Assembly (NCBI RefSeq): GCF_900188115.1 | Contig: NZ_FZNW01000011.1 | Span: 62,001 to 126,000 of the forward strand | Length of the DNA stretch: 64,000 bases | Source of the DNA: Haloechinothrix alba | Lineage (GTDB): Bacteria > Actinomycetota > Actinomycetes > Mycobacteriales > Pseudonocardiaceae | Direction of reading: 5' to 3' | In this document: positions 10,162 to 17,544 of the stretch, piece by piece | Layout of the letters: each line of letters begins with the position of its first letter | How positions within the stretch are numbered: the stretch's first letter is position 1 | The notes under the pieces: generated by a model | Told to the model about the DNA's origin: nothing | Database searches by the model: none | The model's input: only the letters and a program-made list of their open reading frames with translations | Program-made: the position numbers and the translations under genes

Positions 10162-11439
10162 TCAGGACCGTCCGTGCCTGCGGGTCGTCACCACCGAGCG
10201 GGTGTCCAGCGTCATGTGGTCGAGCTCGTCGACAGAGTCCTTCAGGCGCACCCGGCCGGTTTCGGCGTCCTCGACGTCCACCACCTTGGACAGCAGCTTC
10301 ATGGTCTCGGCGTGCTCGGACTGCGCCGCGAGCGCGACGGCCCGACCCAGCTCGTGCGTAGCGGTGTCCGGGTCGCCGGAACGGTGGGCGTCCAGCCCGT
10401 GCCGGATGGCTGTCGCCAGCTCGACCTGTCCCGTGTAGTGCGCCACCTGCGGATCGAGGGCACCGTAGTAGGCGGGGTCATCGGTCCATGTGGCGAGGAC
10501 CTTGCCGCGGCCGAGTACCTCACCGGCCGCGTCGACGACGCTGACCCGGCACGCCAGCATGGTGTCGCCGACCCCGGCCGCGGGTACGGCGATACGCACC
10601 TGGAAGGCCCTCGTCTCGGACTCCCACGCGCCTGTCGCGTAGTCGCAGGCCTGAACGTGGGCGTTCTCCTGATGCGCGGTCAGGTCGAGCACGGCAGGGT
10701 CGACCTGCCGGACGACCGTGACGGCCGCTTCCTTCGGGGTCCACAGCCGTAGCGTGACGTCGGGAACGGACTTGCGCATCGCCCGCTCGATCATGGCGGC
10801 GAAGTCGGTGACCAGCTCGTCGGGCTCGGCCACGATGTCGACCGTGCCCAGCAGCGCCTCCGATATCTGGCGAAGCTCGCTGACCAGCCAGTCCGTGCCG
10901 ACACCGCGGCAGTCGCAGCGGAACGTGTCCTGCAGCTCCGTCAACGCCGCGGAGACAGCCTCGGGCTGTTCCGAGGTGTTGCGCCCGTCGGTGAGCAGGA
11001 TGGCGTGCCGGAGCTCGTACTCGCTCCCGGCGAACAGCGCGCCCGCCGCACGCAGCCACCGGCTCATCGCGGTGCCGCCGCCTGCGGTGATCTCGTCAAC
11101 GGCGCGCTTGGCCTCGTACCTCGTGGTGTCGCCTGCCACCGCGAGCTCCGAGGAGTCCGGGTAGATCATGGTCGTTTCGTGCGTGCCTGCGACGATGGCG
11201 AAACCCGCGCCGTCGCGCAAGCTGTCGATCGCGGCGTGCGCGGCGCGCTTGGCCGCGGCCAGCTTGCTCGGCCGGTGCATCGAGGCCGAGCAGTCGAGCA
11301 GGATCACCACCGCGACCGACGGTCGCAGCTCCTGCGCGGGCGGGTGCGCGGTGACCGTCACGATCGCATCGACCGTGTCCGCTCCCCGTGGCAGGTACCG
11401 GTTCTGCGCGACCTCGACATCGAAGTGTGGCTGCTCCAT
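10162..11439 (-). CDS. von Willebrand factor A domain protein (TerY-like partner)
   Basis: Cytosolic vWA protein of 425 aa. The MIDAS metal site is complete: DCSASM (DxSxS, about residue 50), Thr in GGGTAMSRW and Asp in LLTDGRN. After the vWA domain (about 40-220) comes a beta-rich region and a helical C-terminus. The ATG at 11439 overlaps the TGA of the PP2C gene as ATGA, so it is translated with it. In TerY-P-type systems a vWA protein is paired with a PP2C phosphatase and a kinase, exactly the three adjacent products here. The partner or substrate bound by the vWA domain is unknown. A GTG at 11448 is an alternative start. Confidence 0.88.
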
Positions 11440-12833
11440 CACGGCCACCTTCTCCCCGCCGGGAAGGGCACGGCAATCACCGCGACGTTGTCGCGGCCTC
11501 CCTCGGACAGCGCATACCCCACCAGACCGGCCGCCGCACCGGCCGCGCTGCCGTGCGTCAGGACCCGGGCCGCGAGCGTGCCCGGGTCATCCAGGTAACC
11601 CCACAACCCGTCGGTGCACAACACGAGCACGCCGGCACGGTCCGGGCGGACCGTGCTTACCTGCGGGTCCGTACCGTCGGAGTCGGCACCGAGCCACCGG
11701 GTCAGGGTGTGCGCGGCCCGCATGCCATCGGCGAGGTAGGTGTTGCGCACCGTATGGTCGGTGGTCAGGCAGGTGACGCCCTCGCCGGGACCACCGTGCG
11801 CACCGGCAGCATCCGCCCGGGCACCGGGGGCCACCCAGTACGCCCGGCTGTCGCCCAGCCACGCCACCGTGACCTCGGCCCCGGTCACCACGGCGGAGAC
11901 GTACGTCGTCGCAGGCGTGTCCTCCTCGGCCGGACCGGGCTCGGCGAGGGCGTTGACCGCGTCACCGGCAGCCGCTATCGCCATGGTGCTGGCCTTGCGC
12001 GCGTCCAGCCCGTCGGCGAGACAGCCGAGCAGCTCGGCCGCCCCGGCATCCGCGGCGTTCTGCGCCGCCTGACCGGCCATCGCACCGGAACCGACGCCGT
12101 CGCAGACGACCGCGGCGACGTACTCCGGCTGCGCGGCGTCCCCGGTGAAACCGAACGCCATGGCGTCGGCGTTGGACTCGCGCACCCGCCCCCTGTCGCT
12201 GACTCCTGCCACGACACCCACGTCATCGGCCATCCGGTCCCTGCCGGTCGGTTGGCGAAGGCCGCACCTCAGGCAGTACCCGTCCTCGTCCACGTCGCGG
12301 TACTCGCAGTGCACGCAGCCATCCTGGCTGTCCCGCACGGAACCGCCGACCGGCGTCACGGTGATGCGCGTCCGGGCATCCGGGGACCGCACGGCCGCCT
12401 CGTCCAGTGCAGCCTCACCGGGCCATACCGGCTCCGCCTGCGGCGCGGACTCGTGCAGCGGCCCGGCCGGCTCCGCCGTCGTGGTCGGCTCGGCGGGCCC
12501 GCCCTGTACAGCCCTCGTGGGGGACTCGCCGACGGGCCGGACCGGGATGGCCCGTGTCGGGGGTTCGGCGATGGGCCACGCCGGATCGGCCCTCGTCGGG
12601 AGGTCGGCGACGGGCCACTGCGTCAGAGCCCTCGTCATGGCCTCCGCTGCGAAGGAGTCCGCCCGCGGTTCGGTGCCCGGCGGCTCCGTCACCCGTGCCG
12701 CGGCCTCCGCCCGCGGCTCGGGCGGGACCGCCGCGGCGCCCGCCGTAGACTCGCCGATCCGGCCCCCACAGGCCTCACAGAACACGTCCCCGGGCCGTGC
12801 CGGCTCGCCGCAGGAAGGGCACCGTGTCGACAT
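11439..12833 (-). CDS. PP2C-family Ser/Thr protein phosphatase with N-terminal zinc ribbons
   Basis: Metal-dependent phosphatase of 464 aa, probably opposing the upstream PknG-like kinase. The N-terminus carries a zinc ribbon CPSCGEPARPGDVFCEACGG. After an Ala/Pro-rich linker a second one follows, CVHCEYRDVDEDGYCLRCG (about residue 180). The PP2C core (about 210-460) has VSDRGRVRESNADA, AAVVCDGVGSGAMAG, VAWLGDSRAYWV, LVLCTDGLWGYL and GGRDNVAVI, so the metal-binding aspartates are present. The ATG at 12833 overlaps the kinase TGA (TGATG) and its own TGA overlaps the vWA ATG. The second ribbon resembles the one starting the kinase, suggesting a shared docking partner. Confidence 0.92.
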   Translation of the reverse strand: MSTRCPSCGEPARPGDVFCEACGGRIGESTAGAAAVPPEPRAEAAARVTEPPGTEPRADSFAAEAMTRALTQWPVADLPTRADPAWPIAEPPTRAIPVRPVGESPTRAVQGGPAEPTTTAEPAGPLHESAPQAEPVWPGEAALDEAAVRSPDARTRITVTPVGGSVRDSQDGCVHCEYRDVDEDGYCLRCGLRQPTGRDRMADDVGVVAGVSDRGRVRESNADAMAFGFTGDAAQPEYVAAVVCDGVGSGAMAGQAAQNAADAGAAELLGCLADGLDARKASTMAIAAAGDAVNALAEPGPAEEDTPATTYVSAVVTGAEVTVAWLGDSRAYWVAPGARADAAGAHGGPGEGVTCLTTDHTVRNTYLADGMRAAHTLTRWLGADSDGTDPQVSTVRPDRAGVLVLCTDGLWGYLDDPGTLAARVLTHGSAAGAAAGLVGYALSEGGRDNVAVIAVPFPAGRRWP

Positions 12834-15025
12834 CACAGTTGAGTCCATGGACGCACCTGGTTGGCCCGGTCGACAAGGGCGTAGCGTTCGGTCAGGCTAC
12901 TCGCGTGCCGGGCGAGCACGCGGTACCGGTGCTCGAGGGCGAACCGCAGCGGATCCTCCGTCAGCGAGCACCCCAGTACCTCGCCTGCCTGCCCGTCGTC
13001 CCCGGCGAACGACCACTCCAGCGCGGCCGCCAGCAACTCGACCTCCAACTGCACCTGCCCGACCTCGTCCATGTCGAGGTCCGCTATCCGCTCACCGGCA
13101 CCCGAGAAGTCCTCGGCGGTCAGCGACTCGGGTTCGGCTGCCACGGTGCCCACCCGCACGGCCGCGACCTGAGCGGCGAGGTGGTGTGCCGACGTCGGCG
13201 GTACCGAGCCGAGCACGGCAGCCGCCTCGGCCCGCTCACCGCCGCGCAACAACACCCTGGCCAGCCCGAAAGCCGCGCTGACGAACGACCGGTCGGTCCG
13301 CCACACGATGCGGTAGTAGTGCTCGGCGTCGACCAGATCGTCGAGGAGCTCGGCGCAGACGGCCAACCCCAGCTTGGGCGCGAGCTCACCGGGCAGCATG
13401 CCCAGCACCGAGTCGAACTCGCCGCGCGCCCGCACCGGGTCGGCGGCCGCGAGCGCGGCCAGCGCTATCGCCCAGCGCGCACGCCAGGTCCCGTCCTCGT
13501 CCGCCGCGTCGGCCTCGTTCCGGGCCCCCTGCCGATCGCCGAGCTCGATCAACGCACGAACCCTGCGTAGCCGCACCTCGGTTGTGACGGGCACGTCACG
13601 CAGCGACGCGAGCAGCTCCGTCGGCGAGGCCGCCGCGAGGGTGGTCAGCAGGTCCGCGGCGGGGTCGGCCGTGTCCACCCGGGGCACCGGCAGCTCGTGA
13701 GCGACCTCGTCCAGCTCTGTCGTTCTCAGCGCCGCCCCGGACGAACCGCCGGTGGCGAACCCGTGCAGCTCCGGCCCGAAGTGTGTGGACGCGGCCTGCC
13801 GGGGCTGCCCGTCGGAGGCCGCCATGACCTCCCGGAGCACGCCGGTAAGCTGCTCGGCCATCTCGGGAGCGGAGCCGAACCGGCGCGCCGGGTCGGGATG
13901 GCAGGCCCGCAGCAGCGCCCTGCGGAACGACTCGCGCTCGGCGAGCAGCCGGGCCTCGGACGGAGGCGGGAGCCGCGTGGCATAGCTGCCGGTGAAGTCG
14001 AACGGGATGGTGAGCACGGCCAACGTCCGCCCCATGGCGTACAGGTCCGAGGCCACCGACGGCCCCTGCTCGGTGACCTCGGGTGCCTGGTACCCGACGG
14101 TGCCGTAGACGGCGGCCGAGACGTCGCCCGCGTGCCGCACCGCCCCCAGGTCGATCAGTTTGAGCAGCTCCTGGGTCTGCACCATGTTGTCCGGTTTGAC
14201 GTCGCAGTACAGCAAGCCCTCGTCGTGCAGGTAGCCGATGGGGCGCAGCGCCTCGATGGTGTAGGCGAGCGCCTGCTCGACCGGCAGGCTCGCCTGCCCG
14301 TCGTGTTCCCGCCGCCGCTGTTTGACCAGGTCCTTCAACGACTGCCCGCCGACGTACTCCATCACGATGTAGCCGGTGCTGCCACCGTCGGACTCGCTGT
14401 GCTGGACGAAATTGTGGATCTTGACGATGTTCGGGTGCTCGACCTTGGCCAGGAAGTGCCGCTCGGCGATCACCGCCGCTGTCGCGTCGGCGTCGGCGCT
14501 GTCGATCAGCCCCTTGAGCACCACCCACCGATCCGACACTGCGCGGTCGCGGGCGAGGTACACCCAGCCCAACCCGCCGTGGGCCAGGCAGCCCAGAACC
14601 TCGTACTGGTCGTGCACGACATCCCCCGGCCCCATGGCCGGTGTGAACCGGTAGCGCTGACCACACTGCGGGCAGAAACCGTCCGAGCGGGCGGGGCGGT
14701 CCGCGCGGGAGCGACCCACCTCGCTGCCGCACCGGGCGCAGAAGCGCTGATTCTCGGGAACGCGCGGGTCGGTAATGACGACTTCCGCCGGATCCCGGTA
14801 CGGGACCGGCGGCACGTCGACCAGACCGGCGCCGAGCATTCCCCGGCCGGATGTGCCCGGACGCGAGGGCGCCGAGCCGGTCGTGACCGATGGGCGCGAC
14901 CACGTCGCCACGCTGTCCGTGCGGGTGGAGGGGCGGCCTCCGTTCTCGGCCTGCAGCCCACACGACTCGCAAAAGCCGTCCTCGTCGATCACTCCCGCGC
15001 AGCCGACGCGCGGGCACCAAGTCAT
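12833..15025 (-). CDS. pknG: PknG-like Ser/Thr protein kinase
   Basis: Soluble kinase of 730 aa, close to mycobacterial PknG (about 750). An N-terminal zinc ribbon (CPRVGC ... DEDGFCESCG) is followed by a rubredoxin-like metal site (RFCARCGSEV and GFCPQCGQRY, about 90-125). The kinase domain follows (about 137-400): glycine loop CLAHGGLGWVYLARD, VAIK-like lysine WVVLKGL, catalytic loop LLYCDVKPDNM, DFG replaced by DLG in LKLIDLGAV, and APE-like QAPEV. The C-terminal 300 residues are TPR-like helices (RARGEFDSVLGMLPGELAPK). In mycobacteria and corynebacteria PknG phosphorylates OdhI/GarA to tune the TCA cycle, and its genes are pknG-glnH-glnX as here. Odd: the TGATG overlap with a PP2C gene. 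Confidence 0.94.
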   Translation of the reverse strand: MTWCPRVGCAGVIDEDGFCESCGLQAENGGRPSTRTDSVATWSRPSVTTGSAPSRPGTSGRGMLGAGLVDVPPVPYRDPAEVVITDPRVPENQRFCARCGSEVGRSRADRPARSDGFCPQCGQRYRFTPAMGPGDVVHDQYEVLGCLAHGGLGWVYLARDRAVSDRWVVLKGLIDSADADATAAVIAERHFLAKVEHPNIVKIHNFVQHSESDGGSTGYIVMEYVGGQSLKDLVKQRRREHDGQASLPVEQALAYTIEALRPIGYLHDEGLLYCDVKPDNMVQTQELLKLIDLGAVRHAGDVSAAVYGTVGYQAPEVTEQGPSVASDLYAMGRTLAVLTIPFDFTGSYATRLPPPSEARLLAERESFRRALLRACHPDPARRFGSAPEMAEQLTGVLREVMAASDGQPRQAASTHFGPELHGFATGGSSGAALRTTELDEVAHELPVPRVDTADPAADLLTTLAAASPTELLASLRDVPVTTEVRLRRVRALIELGDRQGARNEADAADEDGTWRARWAIALAALAAADPVRARGEFDSVLGMLPGELAPKLGLAVCAELLDDLVDAEHYYRIVWRTDRSFVSAAFGLARVLLRGGERAEAAAVLGSVPPTSAHHLAAQVAAVRVGTVAAEPESLTAEDFSGAGERIADLDMDEVGQVQLEVELLAAALEWSFAGDDGQAGEVLGCSLTEDPLRFALEHRYRVLARHASSLTERYALVDRANQVRPWTQL

Positions 15026-15184
15026 GCCGCTCTCCCCTCTTCGCTACATCCACAACGCGGGCCACACCGGGCGAATCTCGAGTCTAGATACGAAACCACT
15101 CCTTCCCCAGGTACTTCGCACGTCCGGCAACGGCCCCGGCCGGACCGGCGAGACAGCGACCATCGAGACACCGGGTCGGGCTCC

Positions 15185-16156
15185 CTACCGGTACGTGGGT
15201 TCCGGCGGCTCGGCCGGGCCGAGGGCCGGTTCGAGCCAGGTGGCGTACAGCTCCGACCATCGCTGCTGGCGAAGCTCCTCGAGGAAGGCATTGACGTAAC
15301 GCACCATGTCCTCGTTTCCCTTGGGTATCCCGATGCCGTACGGCTCGCTGCTGATCCGCTCCCCGACGATCTCGGTGGTCGGGTCCTGCTCGGCCATCCC
15401 CGCGAGGATCGTGTCGTCCGTGGAGATCGCCTCGACCTGCCCCTGCTGCAGCAACACCAAGCAGTCCGAGATGCTGTCCACCTCCACCAGTTCCGGCCGG
15501 GGGTCGGCGGCGTCGACGTTCACCGACGATGTCGACCCGCGCGGGGCGCAGACCGGCTCACCCCCGAGATCGGCGAGCGAGGAGTAGCTGGAGTCCTCAC
15601 GAACGAGCACCCGCTGACCTGCCACGTAGTACACACTGGAGAAATCGATGTGCTCGCGCCGCTCGCAGTTCATCGTCATCATGAAGACCACGACGTCCAC
15701 CGCGCCCTCGGTGAGGGCGGGGATGCGGTCCGCAACGGACAAGGCCGTGAACTGCACCTTGTCCGGGTCACCCAGCAACGCGTCCGCCAGCTCACGCGCG
15801 ATGTCGATGTCGAATCCCTCCAGCTCGCCCGTGGTGGGGTCACGGAACCCGAACAGGTGGGTGTTCTGGTCGACCCCGACGATCAGCCTGTCCCGCTCGA
15901 TGATCTCGTCCATCGTCGAGCCCTCCGGCACGTCGGTCCCGTCCGGCGGCAGACTCGCCGCGGGGTCGCCGCAGTCCTGTTCGTCGTCCTCATCGGGCTC
16001 GTCCTCCTCATCGGGCAGCTGCTCGGTCACCCCGGCGTTGGCAGGCATGGGACGCTGCGCCGGTTCGACGGGTACCAGCGTCCGGGGTTGCCCCACGGGG
16101 CCACACGCCGCCACCAGCAGCCCGAGTACGGCTATCAGGACCGTCAGACGTCTCAT
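15185..16156 (-). CDS. glnH: GlnH-like amino-acid-binding lipoprotein
   Basis: Extracytoplasmic solute-binding lipoprotein of 323 aa, known in related genera as the ligand sensor that acts with GlnX to control PknG. The ATG at 16156 (MRRLTVLIAVLGLLVAAC) gives a short signal peptide and a lipobox ending at Cys18; it overlaps the glnX TGA as ATGA. An unusual acidic linker (DEEDEPDEDDEQD) separates the anchor from the type-3 binding fold, which shows LIVGVDQNTHLFGFRD, GFDIDIARELADALLG and SVADRIPALTEGAVDVV. Family ligands are Asp, Glu and related amino acids. A 158-bp gap separates it from pknG. Confidence 0.92.
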   Translation of the reverse strand: MRRLTVLIAVLGLLVAACGPVGQPRTLVPVEPAQRPMPANAGVTEQLPDEEDEPDEDDEQDCGDPAASLPPDGTDVPEGSTMDEIIERDRLIVGVDQNTHLFGFRDPTTGELEGFDIDIARELADALLGDPDKVQFTALSVADRIPALTEGAVDVVVFMMTMNCERREHIDFSSVYYVAGQRVLVREDSSYSSLADLGGEPVCAPRGSTSSVNVDAADPRPELVEVDSISDCLVLLQQGQVEAISTDDTILAGMAEQDPTTEIVGERISSEPYGIGIPKGNEDMVRYVNAFLEELRQQRWSELYATWLEPALGPAEPPEPTYR

Positions 16157-17544
16157 CGATACTCCCTGAGGCGCTGTCTGATGCCGATCACAACCCCGCC
16201 TGCTCCGACCGCGGCCAGCGCCAGCCACCCTTCGACGAGGCCGGTCAGCGCGCGCTCGCCGGTAACCGTCGAGGTCACGAACTCCTCCCGCCCGGCCTGG
16301 ATCGCCTCGGCCAGACTGCTGTCGAGCCGCGCGAACGCGGTTCCGCTCCCCGTCTCGGACTCGGTGTCCACGGCCAGCTCGACAGCGTCGTTGTAGTCGC
16401 CGCCGTCGGCGAGATCACGCAGCGTCTCGTGGGTGCGAAGCCACCCGGTCGCACTGGCAACGGCGTCCTCGACGGGGCCGGAGAGCTGCGCGGATGCCGT
16501 GTCGCGCAACTCGCCCAGCCTGCCACCGGTGCCGTCCTGCCCGGCGATCTGCCCGGCCAGCTCGGCGAACCTGTCCTCGTATGCCTCGCCGTCTCCGCGC
16601 GCGACCAGCGCGAGCAGCTCGTCGGCCCTGGCCTGCAGAGCCGCGATCCTGGTCTGCACGAGCACGTCCACCTGCTCGGACCCGTCACGCTGTCCCGACG
16701 TGACAAGCGTGCCCTGCACCGACAGCGCGACCGCGCTCCAGATCAGACCGACGACCAGCGCCACGGTCGCCACGACGAGACCGATGTTGTACCGGCGCTT
16801 CACCAGGCGCCTGATGTGGGACTGCGCGCGCAGCAACCCCACCAGCGCGACGGCCAGCAGGGCGATCGCGATGAACGGCACGCTCGTGGTCGCCGACTGC
16901 GCCTGCGCCAGCCGCTCGCGCTGGATCCGGTACAGCTCCTCGACGGCGGGCAGGACCCGTTCCCGCATGAGATGCGAGGACTCCCGCAGGTAGGCCGCGC
17001 CCACCGGCAACCCCTGGCGGTTGTTCGCGCGCGCCGTCCCCACGAGCTCGGAGTAGACGGGGACCTGCCGAACGACCACCGAAACCTGGCGCGCGGCTTC
17101 CGCGTCCCTCACCGCATCGAAACCGGCCAGCGCCAGCGACGGCCCGACGACGGCGATGTCGTCCTCGTAGCGCACCCGCAGCTCTTCTGGCTCGTCGCCC
17201 GCTGCGAGGAACGCCATCGCCGCGGTCGCGTCGGCATCCGACAGCGCCCGGTAAACCTCCTGCACGGTCGCGGCCATCGGCTCCTGGCGATCGACGAGGT
17301 TCGCGGTGGCCTGCGCCCTGCCACTGGTCGAGGCGGCAGCCCCGACGCCGGCCGCGAGGATGACCGCGACCAGCGAGACCGCGATGATCGAGAGCCTGCC
17401 CGGCGTGGTCGACCAGCTCCGCTGCCCTCCCGCGAGGACCCGACGTACGGCAGCGCCCGCGCGGCCGGAGCGCGACCGCCGAGCCCCCGCGGCCGACTCC
17501 CCTGGCACGTGGCCATCGGGTTCGTGAGGCTGCGCTGTACTCAC
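16153..17544 (-). CDS. glnX: GlnX-like membrane sensor
   Basis: Membrane protein of 463 aa that in mycobacteria and corynebacteria passes the GlnH signal to PknG. After a basic N-terminus, a transmembrane segment lies at about residues 50-75 (LSIIAVSLVAVILAAGVG). An extracytoplasmic helical region follows, then two central spans (PFIAIALLAVALVGLL, IGLVVATVALVVGLIW), a second extracytoplasmic helical region and a C-terminal span (GWLALAAVGAGGVVIGIR). This four-helix layout with two outside domains fits the family. The start GTG 17544 is chosen because the residues before it look non-native, but the SD (AGGAG) is about 13 bases away; GTG 17586 is possible. First gene of the operon. Confidence 0.88.
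   Translation of the reverse strand: MSTAQPHEPDGHVPGESAAGARRSRSGRAGAAVRRVLAGGQRSWSTTPGRLSIIAVSLVAVILAAGVGAAASTSGRAQATANLVDRQEPMAATVQEVYRALSDADATAAMAFLAAGDEPEELRVRYEDDIAVVGPSLALAGFDAVRDAEAARQVSVVVRQVPVYSELVGTARANNRQGLPVGAAYLRESSHLMRERVLPAVEELYRIQRERLAQAQSATTSVPFIAIALLAVALVGLLRAQSHIRRLVKRRYNIGLVVATVALVVGLIWSAVALSVQGTLVTSGQRDGSEQVDVLVQTRIAALQARADELLALVARGDGEAYEDRFAELAGQIAGQDGTGGRLGELRDTASAQLSGPVEDAVASATGWLRTHETLRDLADGGDYNDAVELAVDTESETGSGTAFARLDSSLAEAIQAGREEFVTSTVTGERALTGLVEGWLALAAVGAGGVVIGIRQRLREYR

What the first reader, a model, noticed from the sequence alone, without database searches (positions are those of the whole stretch)
10162..17544. GlnX-GlnH-PknG sensing operon extended by a PP2C phosphatase and a vWA protein
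The known actinobacterial pathway links amino-acid binding by GlnH, via GlnX, to PknG, which controls the TCA cycle through OdhI/GarA. Here the operon continues with a PP2C phosphatase and a vWA protein, joined by TGATG and ATGA overlaps. Kinase, PP2C and vWA together are the composition of TerY-P triads described in Ter-type stress systems. The arrangement suggests that the off-switch (phosphatase) and a metal-dependent scaffold are made stoichiometrically with the kinase, a merger of two systems normally treated separately.
Basis: partly seen in the sequence, partly recalled or inferred. Interest (0 to 1): 0.72.

Follow-up and report, generated by a model that had tools for sequence, protein, structure and literature searches.

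The report
PknG kinase operon with phosphatase and scaffold
The well-known nutrient-sensing kinase PknG is encoded here, and in many other actinomycetes, together with its own phosphatase and an archaeal-style scaffold protein, so the three-gene version studied in tuberculosis bacteria is probably a stripped-down form of a larger signalling switch.

Summary
In detail: GlnX-GlnH-PknG-PP2C-vWA lie on the minus strand with ATGA and TGATG overlaps, apart from a 159-bp gap before pknG. It is not a local merger: the arrangement recurs across Pseudonocardiaceae, Streptomyces-like genomes, Actinomadura and one distant class. This genome also has a second, three-gene glnX-glnH-pknG operon from a separate old clade. 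The vWA is not TerY; it has the archaeal ArnB fold (Z 26). In 32 of 52 vWA-bearing loci the next gene encodes a zinc-ribbon-FHA protein, the make-up of archaeal ArnA. PknG, PP2C and FHA all carry zinc ribbons; where the FHA gene is missing, a ribbon is often fused to the vWA (12 of 20). A PknG ribbon with an aromatic residue before its third Cys occurs in 48 of 51 vWA-linked kinases and 0 of 52 others (six independent contrasts, p about 0.03). ArnA's ribbon is known to bind ArnB. Best explanation: the vWA is a docking scaffold for ribbon-tagged kinase and phosphatase, and PP2C is the off-switch. This window lacks the FHA gene, and its GlnH has lost two of three Asp/Glu-contact residues. No binding or activity was tested.

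The parts
16153..17544 (-). GlnX, membrane signal transducer
   Evidence: NCBIfam NF058618 408 bits over cut-off 250; mycobacterial GlnX equivalog NF041460 190.7 bits, below its cut-off 780
15185..16156 (-). GlnH, solute-binding lipoprotein; ligand residues T162 and W232 (M. tuberculosis numbering) are Met and Ile here
   Evidence: SBP_bac_3 1.6e-29; PDB 6h2t E 2e-73; ligand-residue table
15026..15184 (-). 159-bp gap between glnH and pknG
   Evidence: sequence; no consensus promoter or terminator found
12833..15025 (-). PknG kinase (rubredoxin + kinase + TPR)
   Evidence: Pfam; PDB 2pzi E 3e-154, VVLKG and IDLGAV motifs aligned
14957..15016 (-). extra N-terminal zinc ribbon of PknG, CPRVGCAGVIDEDGFCESCG
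   Evidence: sequence; survey
11439..12833 (-). PP2C phosphatase with two N-terminal zinc ribbons
   Evidence: PP2C_2 1.7e-8, Zn_ribbon_3 1.7e-6; profile match to solved PP2Cs 1.9e-28; metal Asp invariant, Haloechinothrix-clade motif 1 reads NAD for NED
12765..12821 (-). PP2C zinc ribbon 1, CPSCGEPARPGDVFCEACG
12261..12317 (-). PP2C zinc ribbon 2, CVHCEYRDVDEDGYCLRCG, resembling the PknG ribbon
10162..11439 (-). ArnB-type vWA protein (vWA set in a beta-sandwich, C-terminal helix bundle)
   Evidence: VWA_3 and VWA_3_C over cut-off; AlphaFold2 pLDDT 85.5; 4fx5 Z 43.1, ArnB 8s05_B Z 26.1
11281..11295 (-). MIDAS DxSxS motif (DCSAS) of the vWA; T123 and D151 complete it
   Evidence: invariant in 16 relatives
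10180..10209 (-). conserved hydroxyl-rich tail [10 protein letters not shown]; Thr418 is Thr or Ser in 56 of 57; candidate phospho-acceptor (inferred)
   Evidence: last residues pLDDT under 50

Best explanation
This is an amino-acid-sensing phosphorylation switch with on and off enzymes and a scaffold in one operon. GlnH binds an amino acid outside the membrane and signals through GlnX to PknG (proposed from genetics and structures in mycobacteria, inferred here). PP2C is the dedicated antagonist (inferred). The ArnB-like vWA is the scaffold: it docks the zinc ribbons of PknG and PP2C on the surface that in Sulfolobus ArnB receives the ribbon of ArnA, so kinase and phosphatase act on a shared, local target (inferred). 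The target is probably the vWA's own C-terminal helix bundle and tail, read by an FHA protein: the ribbon-FHA gene that follows the vWA in most relatives, and in this genome, which lacks that gene, perhaps GarA (weakest step). The five-to-six-gene form is probably the older one; the mycobacterial three-gene operon and this genome's second operon have lost PP2C, vWA and the ribbon.
For: Conserved operon over many genera. FHA-ribbon gene directly after the vWA in 32 of 52 vWA+ loci and 0 of 52 vWA- loci, FHA over the Pfam cut-off. Fused ribbon on the vWA in 0 of 32 loci with the FHA gene but 12 of 20 without it: a natural fusion linking ribbon and vWA. PknG ribbon with aromatic residue: 48 of 51 vWA+ against 0 of 52 vWA-; of 6 independent contrasts on well-supported branches nearly all go the same way and none opposite, median p 0.031. 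PP2C carries at least one ribbon in every locus. ArnB fold. The ArnA ribbon hairpin binds the ArnB beta-sandwich and helix bundle, nutrient-dependently (PMC12852372). MIDAS invariant. PknG and vWA distances co-vary. PP2C_2 has only one other match in this genome.
Against: No complex was modelled and no binding or activity was measured. The vWA segments corresponding to the ArnA-binding site are only moderately conserved (85th and 45th percentile). Seven vWA- kinases keep a four-Cys ribbon without the aromatic residue, so the ribbon may have another role. The aromatic trait was chosen after looking at the same data, and six contrasts is the minimum that can reach significance. FHA or PP2C can be missing while vWA remains. 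The window clade has an E-to-A change in PP2C motif 1, which might weaken its second metal site. The root of the kinase tree is a midpoint, so ancestral presence of the vWA is inference.
Confidence: 0.55

Rival explanations
1. TerY-P merger: PknG has recruited a TerY-P-type PP2C and vWA pair, and the set acts as a metal- or stress-responsive or defence module.
For: Same three enzyme or domain types, and ribbons on the kinase; kinase-ribbon + PP2C + vWA sets are a recurring theme in actinobacteria (PMC7159879). The fused vWA-ribbon variants resemble TerY in outline.
Against: No TerY_C in vWA or genome; no PADLOC match to the vWA and only generic kinase matches for PknG; kinase C-terminus is PknG TPR; nearest folds are 4fx5 and ArnB; PknG and vWA distances co-vary over all vWA+ loci.
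Confidence: 0.1
2. Plain co-expression: PP2C and vWA are expressed with PknG as phosphatase and accessory protein without a physical complex; the ribbons serve nucleic-acid binding or redox sensing.
For: Zinc ribbons are common and bind many things; the PknG rubredoxin site is redox-linked in mycobacteria (PMC6069109).
Against: Co-loss of vWA and aromatic ribbon, vWA-ribbon fusions, and the same kind of module on three different proteins of one cluster are not expected.
Confidence: 0.2
3. Divergent channel: because GlnH has lost Asp/Glu-contact residues and GarA lacks the PknG-type Thr, the window operon senses another ligand and controls something other than GarA and the TCA cycle, leaving the second operon (C29) for acidic amino acids. 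It concerns input and output only and is compatible with the best explanation.
For: Ligand residues RFMTRID here against RRTTRWD in the second operon; GarA motif ERTS; two separate PknG clades.
Against: The GarA change is family-wide, including genomes with three-gene operons, so it does not separate the channels; the remaining Thr may be used.
Confidence: 0.4

Closest known systems
GlnH-GlnX-PknG-GarA/OdhI pathway of mycobacteria and corynebacteria (PMC6069109, PMC2784874)
   Same: Homologous GlnX, GlnH and PknG in the same order; GarA present in the genome.
   Different: Adds ribbon-tagged PP2C and an ArnB-like vWA, an extra ribbon on PknG and an altered GlnH pocket; in C. glutamicum the phosphatase is Ppp, encoded elsewhere.
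ArnA-ArnB module of Sulfolobus (PMC6509490, PMC12852372)
   Same: vWA inserted in a beta-sandwich with C-terminal helix bundle and MIDAS; in relatives, a zinc-ribbon-FHA partner gene; kinase and phosphatase nearby; nutrient input.
   Different: Bacterial, encoded in the kinase operon, ribbons also on kinase and PP2C, PP2C instead of PP2A; this window lacks the FHA gene. The papers note the bacterial 4FX5 as ArnB-like; the passages read did not mention PknG.
TerY-P triad (PMC11090510)
   Same: Kinase, PP2C, vWA and zinc ribbon.
   Different: Other vWA family, ribbon at the N- not C-terminus of the kinase, PknG-type TPR kinase.
T6SS threonine phosphorylation pathway PpkA-PppA-Fha1 (PpkA domains from PMC1262709, the rest from memory)
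   Same: Kinase, vWA, PP2C and FHA in one pathway downstream of an envelope sensor.
   Different: vWA is fused to the kinase and the output is type VI secretion; no homology test was made.

Membership tests
GlnX-GlnH-PknG pathway | GlnX family membrane protein upstream | tested here: met
   NF058618 408 bits, cut-off 250
GlnX-GlnH-PknG pathway | PknG with rubredoxin, kinase and TPR domains | tested here: met
   three Pfam domains over cut-off; 2pzi over its full length
GlnX-GlnH-PknG pathway | GlnH with Asp/Glu side-chain contacts R147, T162, W232 | tested here: not met
   R, M, I in the window; the second operon of the genome keeps R, T, W
GlnX-GlnH-PknG pathway | GarA/OdhI as substrate | tested here: inconclusive
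   GarA orthologue present, 77% identical, but the PknG-type acceptor Thr is Arg
TerY-P triad | TerY-like vWA (TerY_C) | tested here: not met
   no Pfam TerY_C in the protein; only genome match is below cut-off and has stops
TerY-P triad | kinase with C-terminal zinc ribbon | tested here: not met
   C-terminus is PknG_TPR; ribbon is N-terminal
TerY-P triad | PP2C-like phosphatase | tested here: met
   PP2C_2 over cut-off
ArnA-ArnB module | vWA in beta-sandwich plus C-terminal helix bundle with intact MIDAS | tested here: met
   VWA_3_C over cut-off, MIDAS invariant, ArnB Z 26.1 over 333 residues, rmsd 6.6
ArnA-ArnB module | partner protein with zinc ribbon and FHA domain | tested here: not met
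   absent next to the window vWA and not found in the genome; present in 32 of 52 relatives
ArnA-ArnB module | zinc ribbon binds the vWA protein; phosphorylated helix bundle binds FHA | not testable with these tools
   needs complex modelling or binding assays
PP2C phosphatase | conserved metal-binding Asp residues | tested here: met
   D223, D245, D328, D408, D448 invariant; neighbouring Glu of motif 1 is Ala in the Haloechinothrix clade

The most novel reading that the evidence does not exclude
PknG signalling is at root a bacterial counterpart of the archaeal ArnA-ArnB nutrient switch: one ArnB-like scaffold receives the same zinc-ribbon tag from a kinase, its antagonist phosphatase and an FHA reader, so that the three compete for or assemble on one site, and the textbook three-gene PknG operon of Mycobacterium and Corynebacterium is a remainder that has lost scaffold, phosphatase and tag.
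Probability: 0.4. Interest if true: 0.85.

Novelty: new variant of a known kind. Interest (0 to 1): 0.7.

Why it matters
PknG is a studied drug target and metabolic regulator, but how GlnX activates it and what opposes it locally are open. Relatives that keep a dedicated phosphatase, an ArnB-like scaffold and an FHA partner in one operon turn this into a testable complex, tie a bacterial pathway to an archaeal nutrient switch with a solved ribbon-scaffold structure, and suggest that the model organisms carry a reduced version.

Tried and rejected
TerY-P membership (rejected on two defining features). PADLOC defence families (only generic kinase or weak PP2C matches). The Streptomyces SCO4775-4779 kinase cluster was considered as a related case and dropped: five separately transcribed kinases. 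First scoring of the ribbon (strict pattern) put it at 0 of 68 in the three-gene class; a looser pattern found ribbons in 7 vWA- kinases, so only the aromatic form is used as the trait. Scores of L038, L082 and L131 were corrected by eye (L131 has lost its fourth Cys) and L176 was set aside because the contig ends there. PP2C presence against ribbon: only 3 contrasts, so no association can be tested. Conservation of the vWA site matching the ArnA interface: moderate, not decisive.
Full report
The observation. The five genes lie on the minus strand as described. GlnX and GlnH overlap by ATGA; PknG and PP2C, and PP2C and vWA, overlap by TGATG. Between glnH and pknG there is a gap of 159 bp, so one or two transcripts are possible; a consensus scan found neither promoter nor terminator. 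Upstream lie a small membrane protein gene and folC, downstream ndk.

Where it occurs. PknG-containing loci were fetched from public genomes and from a family and a phylum sample and annotated with profiles built from the window genes. GlnX-GlnH-PknG-PP2C-vWA recurs in Haloechinothrix, Actinophytocola, Umezawaea, Thermocrispum, Streptomyces-like genomes (group f5 g8; GlnH and PknG further apart there), and, with GlnX-GlnH downstream, Actinomadura; PknG-PP2C-vWA also occurs in one genome of another class. Some genera have PP2C without vWA, others vWA without PP2C. Amycolatopsis and the Mycobacteriales loci fetched have only GlnX-GlnH-PknG as a rule. The window's own genome has a second glnX-glnH-pknG operon of that three-gene kind (L090). 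The sample is a set of loci, not a census.

Evolution. In a tree of 104 PknG sequences without the ribbon columns, the two kinases of this genome fall in different well-supported clades: the window copy with the five-gene loci, the other in a 28-row three-gene clade (SH-aLRT 99). The mycobacterial kinases form another three-gene clade (100). Most deep branches, including distant PknG paralogues, are next to the same vWA family. PknG and vWA distances co-vary (r 0.95 for 51 loci, 0.90 for the 33 five-gene loci, 0 of 2000 permutations). This suggests that the vWA is old and was lost, but the root is a midpoint and shared species history contributes to the correlation.

What the vWA is. It matches VWA_3 and VWA_3_C, has an invariant MIDAS, and its AlphaFold2 model (mean pLDDT 85.5) aligns best with 4fx5 from Catenulispora (Z 43.1, 44% identity) and then with Sulfolobus ArnB (Z 26.1 over 333 residues, rmsd 6.6). 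ArnB's partner ArnA is a zinc ribbon plus FHA domain. The ribbon's second hairpin (D31-Q41, holding Cys35 and Cys38) binds the ArnB beta-sandwich and helix-bundle linker; after phosphorylation by ArnC the FHA domain binds the helix bundle; the state depends on nutrients (PMC12852372; PMC6509490). The papers name 4FX5 as an ArnB-like structure; the passages read did not mention a PknG operon.

The missing gene. In 32 of the 52 vWA-bearing loci in the tree the next gene encodes a zinc-ribbon-FHA protein. It is absent from the window, from its closest relatives and, as far as one protein search shows, from the rest of the genome, where only GarA matches weakly. [quoted passage not shown] none of the 32 with it do. 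The eight with neither include the five of the window clade; one of them (L164) is likely a broken reading frame.

Ribbon and scaffold. The PknG ribbon with an aromatic residue before the third Cys is found in 48 of 51 scorable kinases next to a vWA and in 0 of 52 others; seven of those others keep four Cys without the aromatic residue. On the tree, 6 independent contrasts on well-supported branches are available and nearly all go the same way, none opposite (median p 0.031). The trait was refined on these data, so this is support and not proof. The aromatic residue lies in the hairpin that corresponds, by position relative to the Cys pairs, to the ArnA contact hairpin; the ArnA sequence itself was not aligned.

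Input and output. GlnH keeps Arg147, Arg169 and Asp250 but has Met for Thr162 and Ile for Trp232, two of the three side chains that select Asp/Glu in M. tuberculosis GlnH (PMC6069109). The second operon's GlnH keeps all three. A different ligand is therefore likely. GarA is present (77% identical), but in 26 Pseudonocardiaceae GarA sequences the acceptor motif reads ERTS, with Arg where C. glutamicum OdhI and mycobacterial GarA have the PknG-phosphorylated Thr (OdhI Thr14 from PMC2784874, the GarA residue from general knowledge). PP2C metal-binding aspartates are intact; its motif 1 has NAD instead of NED in the Haloechinothrix clade. The vWA ends in a conserved S-x-x-T/S-x-R tail, a candidate phosphosite.

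Verdict. A real, conserved operon whose reading as a TerY-P merger is not supported. Best reading: a PknG switch with its own phosphatase and an ArnB-like ribbon-docking scaffold, of which the textbook operon is probably a reduced form. Shown by computation: genes, folds, co-occurrence, fusions. Inferred: docking, antagonism, target. Literature was searched only in an open-access library, so earlier description elsewhere is possible.

Noticed in passing
G000:C60:149015-149431 (L180) and L184-L213: GarA of Pseudonocardiaceae reads PERTSVFRADF: the Thr that PknG phosphorylates in mycobacterial GarA and C. glutamicum OdhI is Arg in all 26 sequences read.
   Followed up: partly
L090 (G000:C29:105500-125400): Second glnX-glnH-pknG operon in the same genome, without PP2C, vWA or ribbon, and with an intact Asp/Glu pocket in GlnH.
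   Followed up: yes
L106, L107, L108, L120, L128, L137, L138, L165, L173, L177: vWA proteins next to distant PknG paralogues carry a zinc ribbon fused at the C-terminus, only where the FHA gene is missing.
   Followed up: yes
L080 and L077: Glycomyces PknG has the N-terminal ribbon in two or three tandem copies.
   Followed up: no
L114, L116, L119 and other Streptomyces-like loci: A gap of about 1.1 to 1.5 kb between glnH and pknG may hold another gene; not identified.
   Followed up: no
window 10180-10209: Window vWA tail [10 protein letters not shown](R) recalls the ArnB phosphopeptides IDTVEQTR and ETTRR (PMC6509490).
   Followed up: partly
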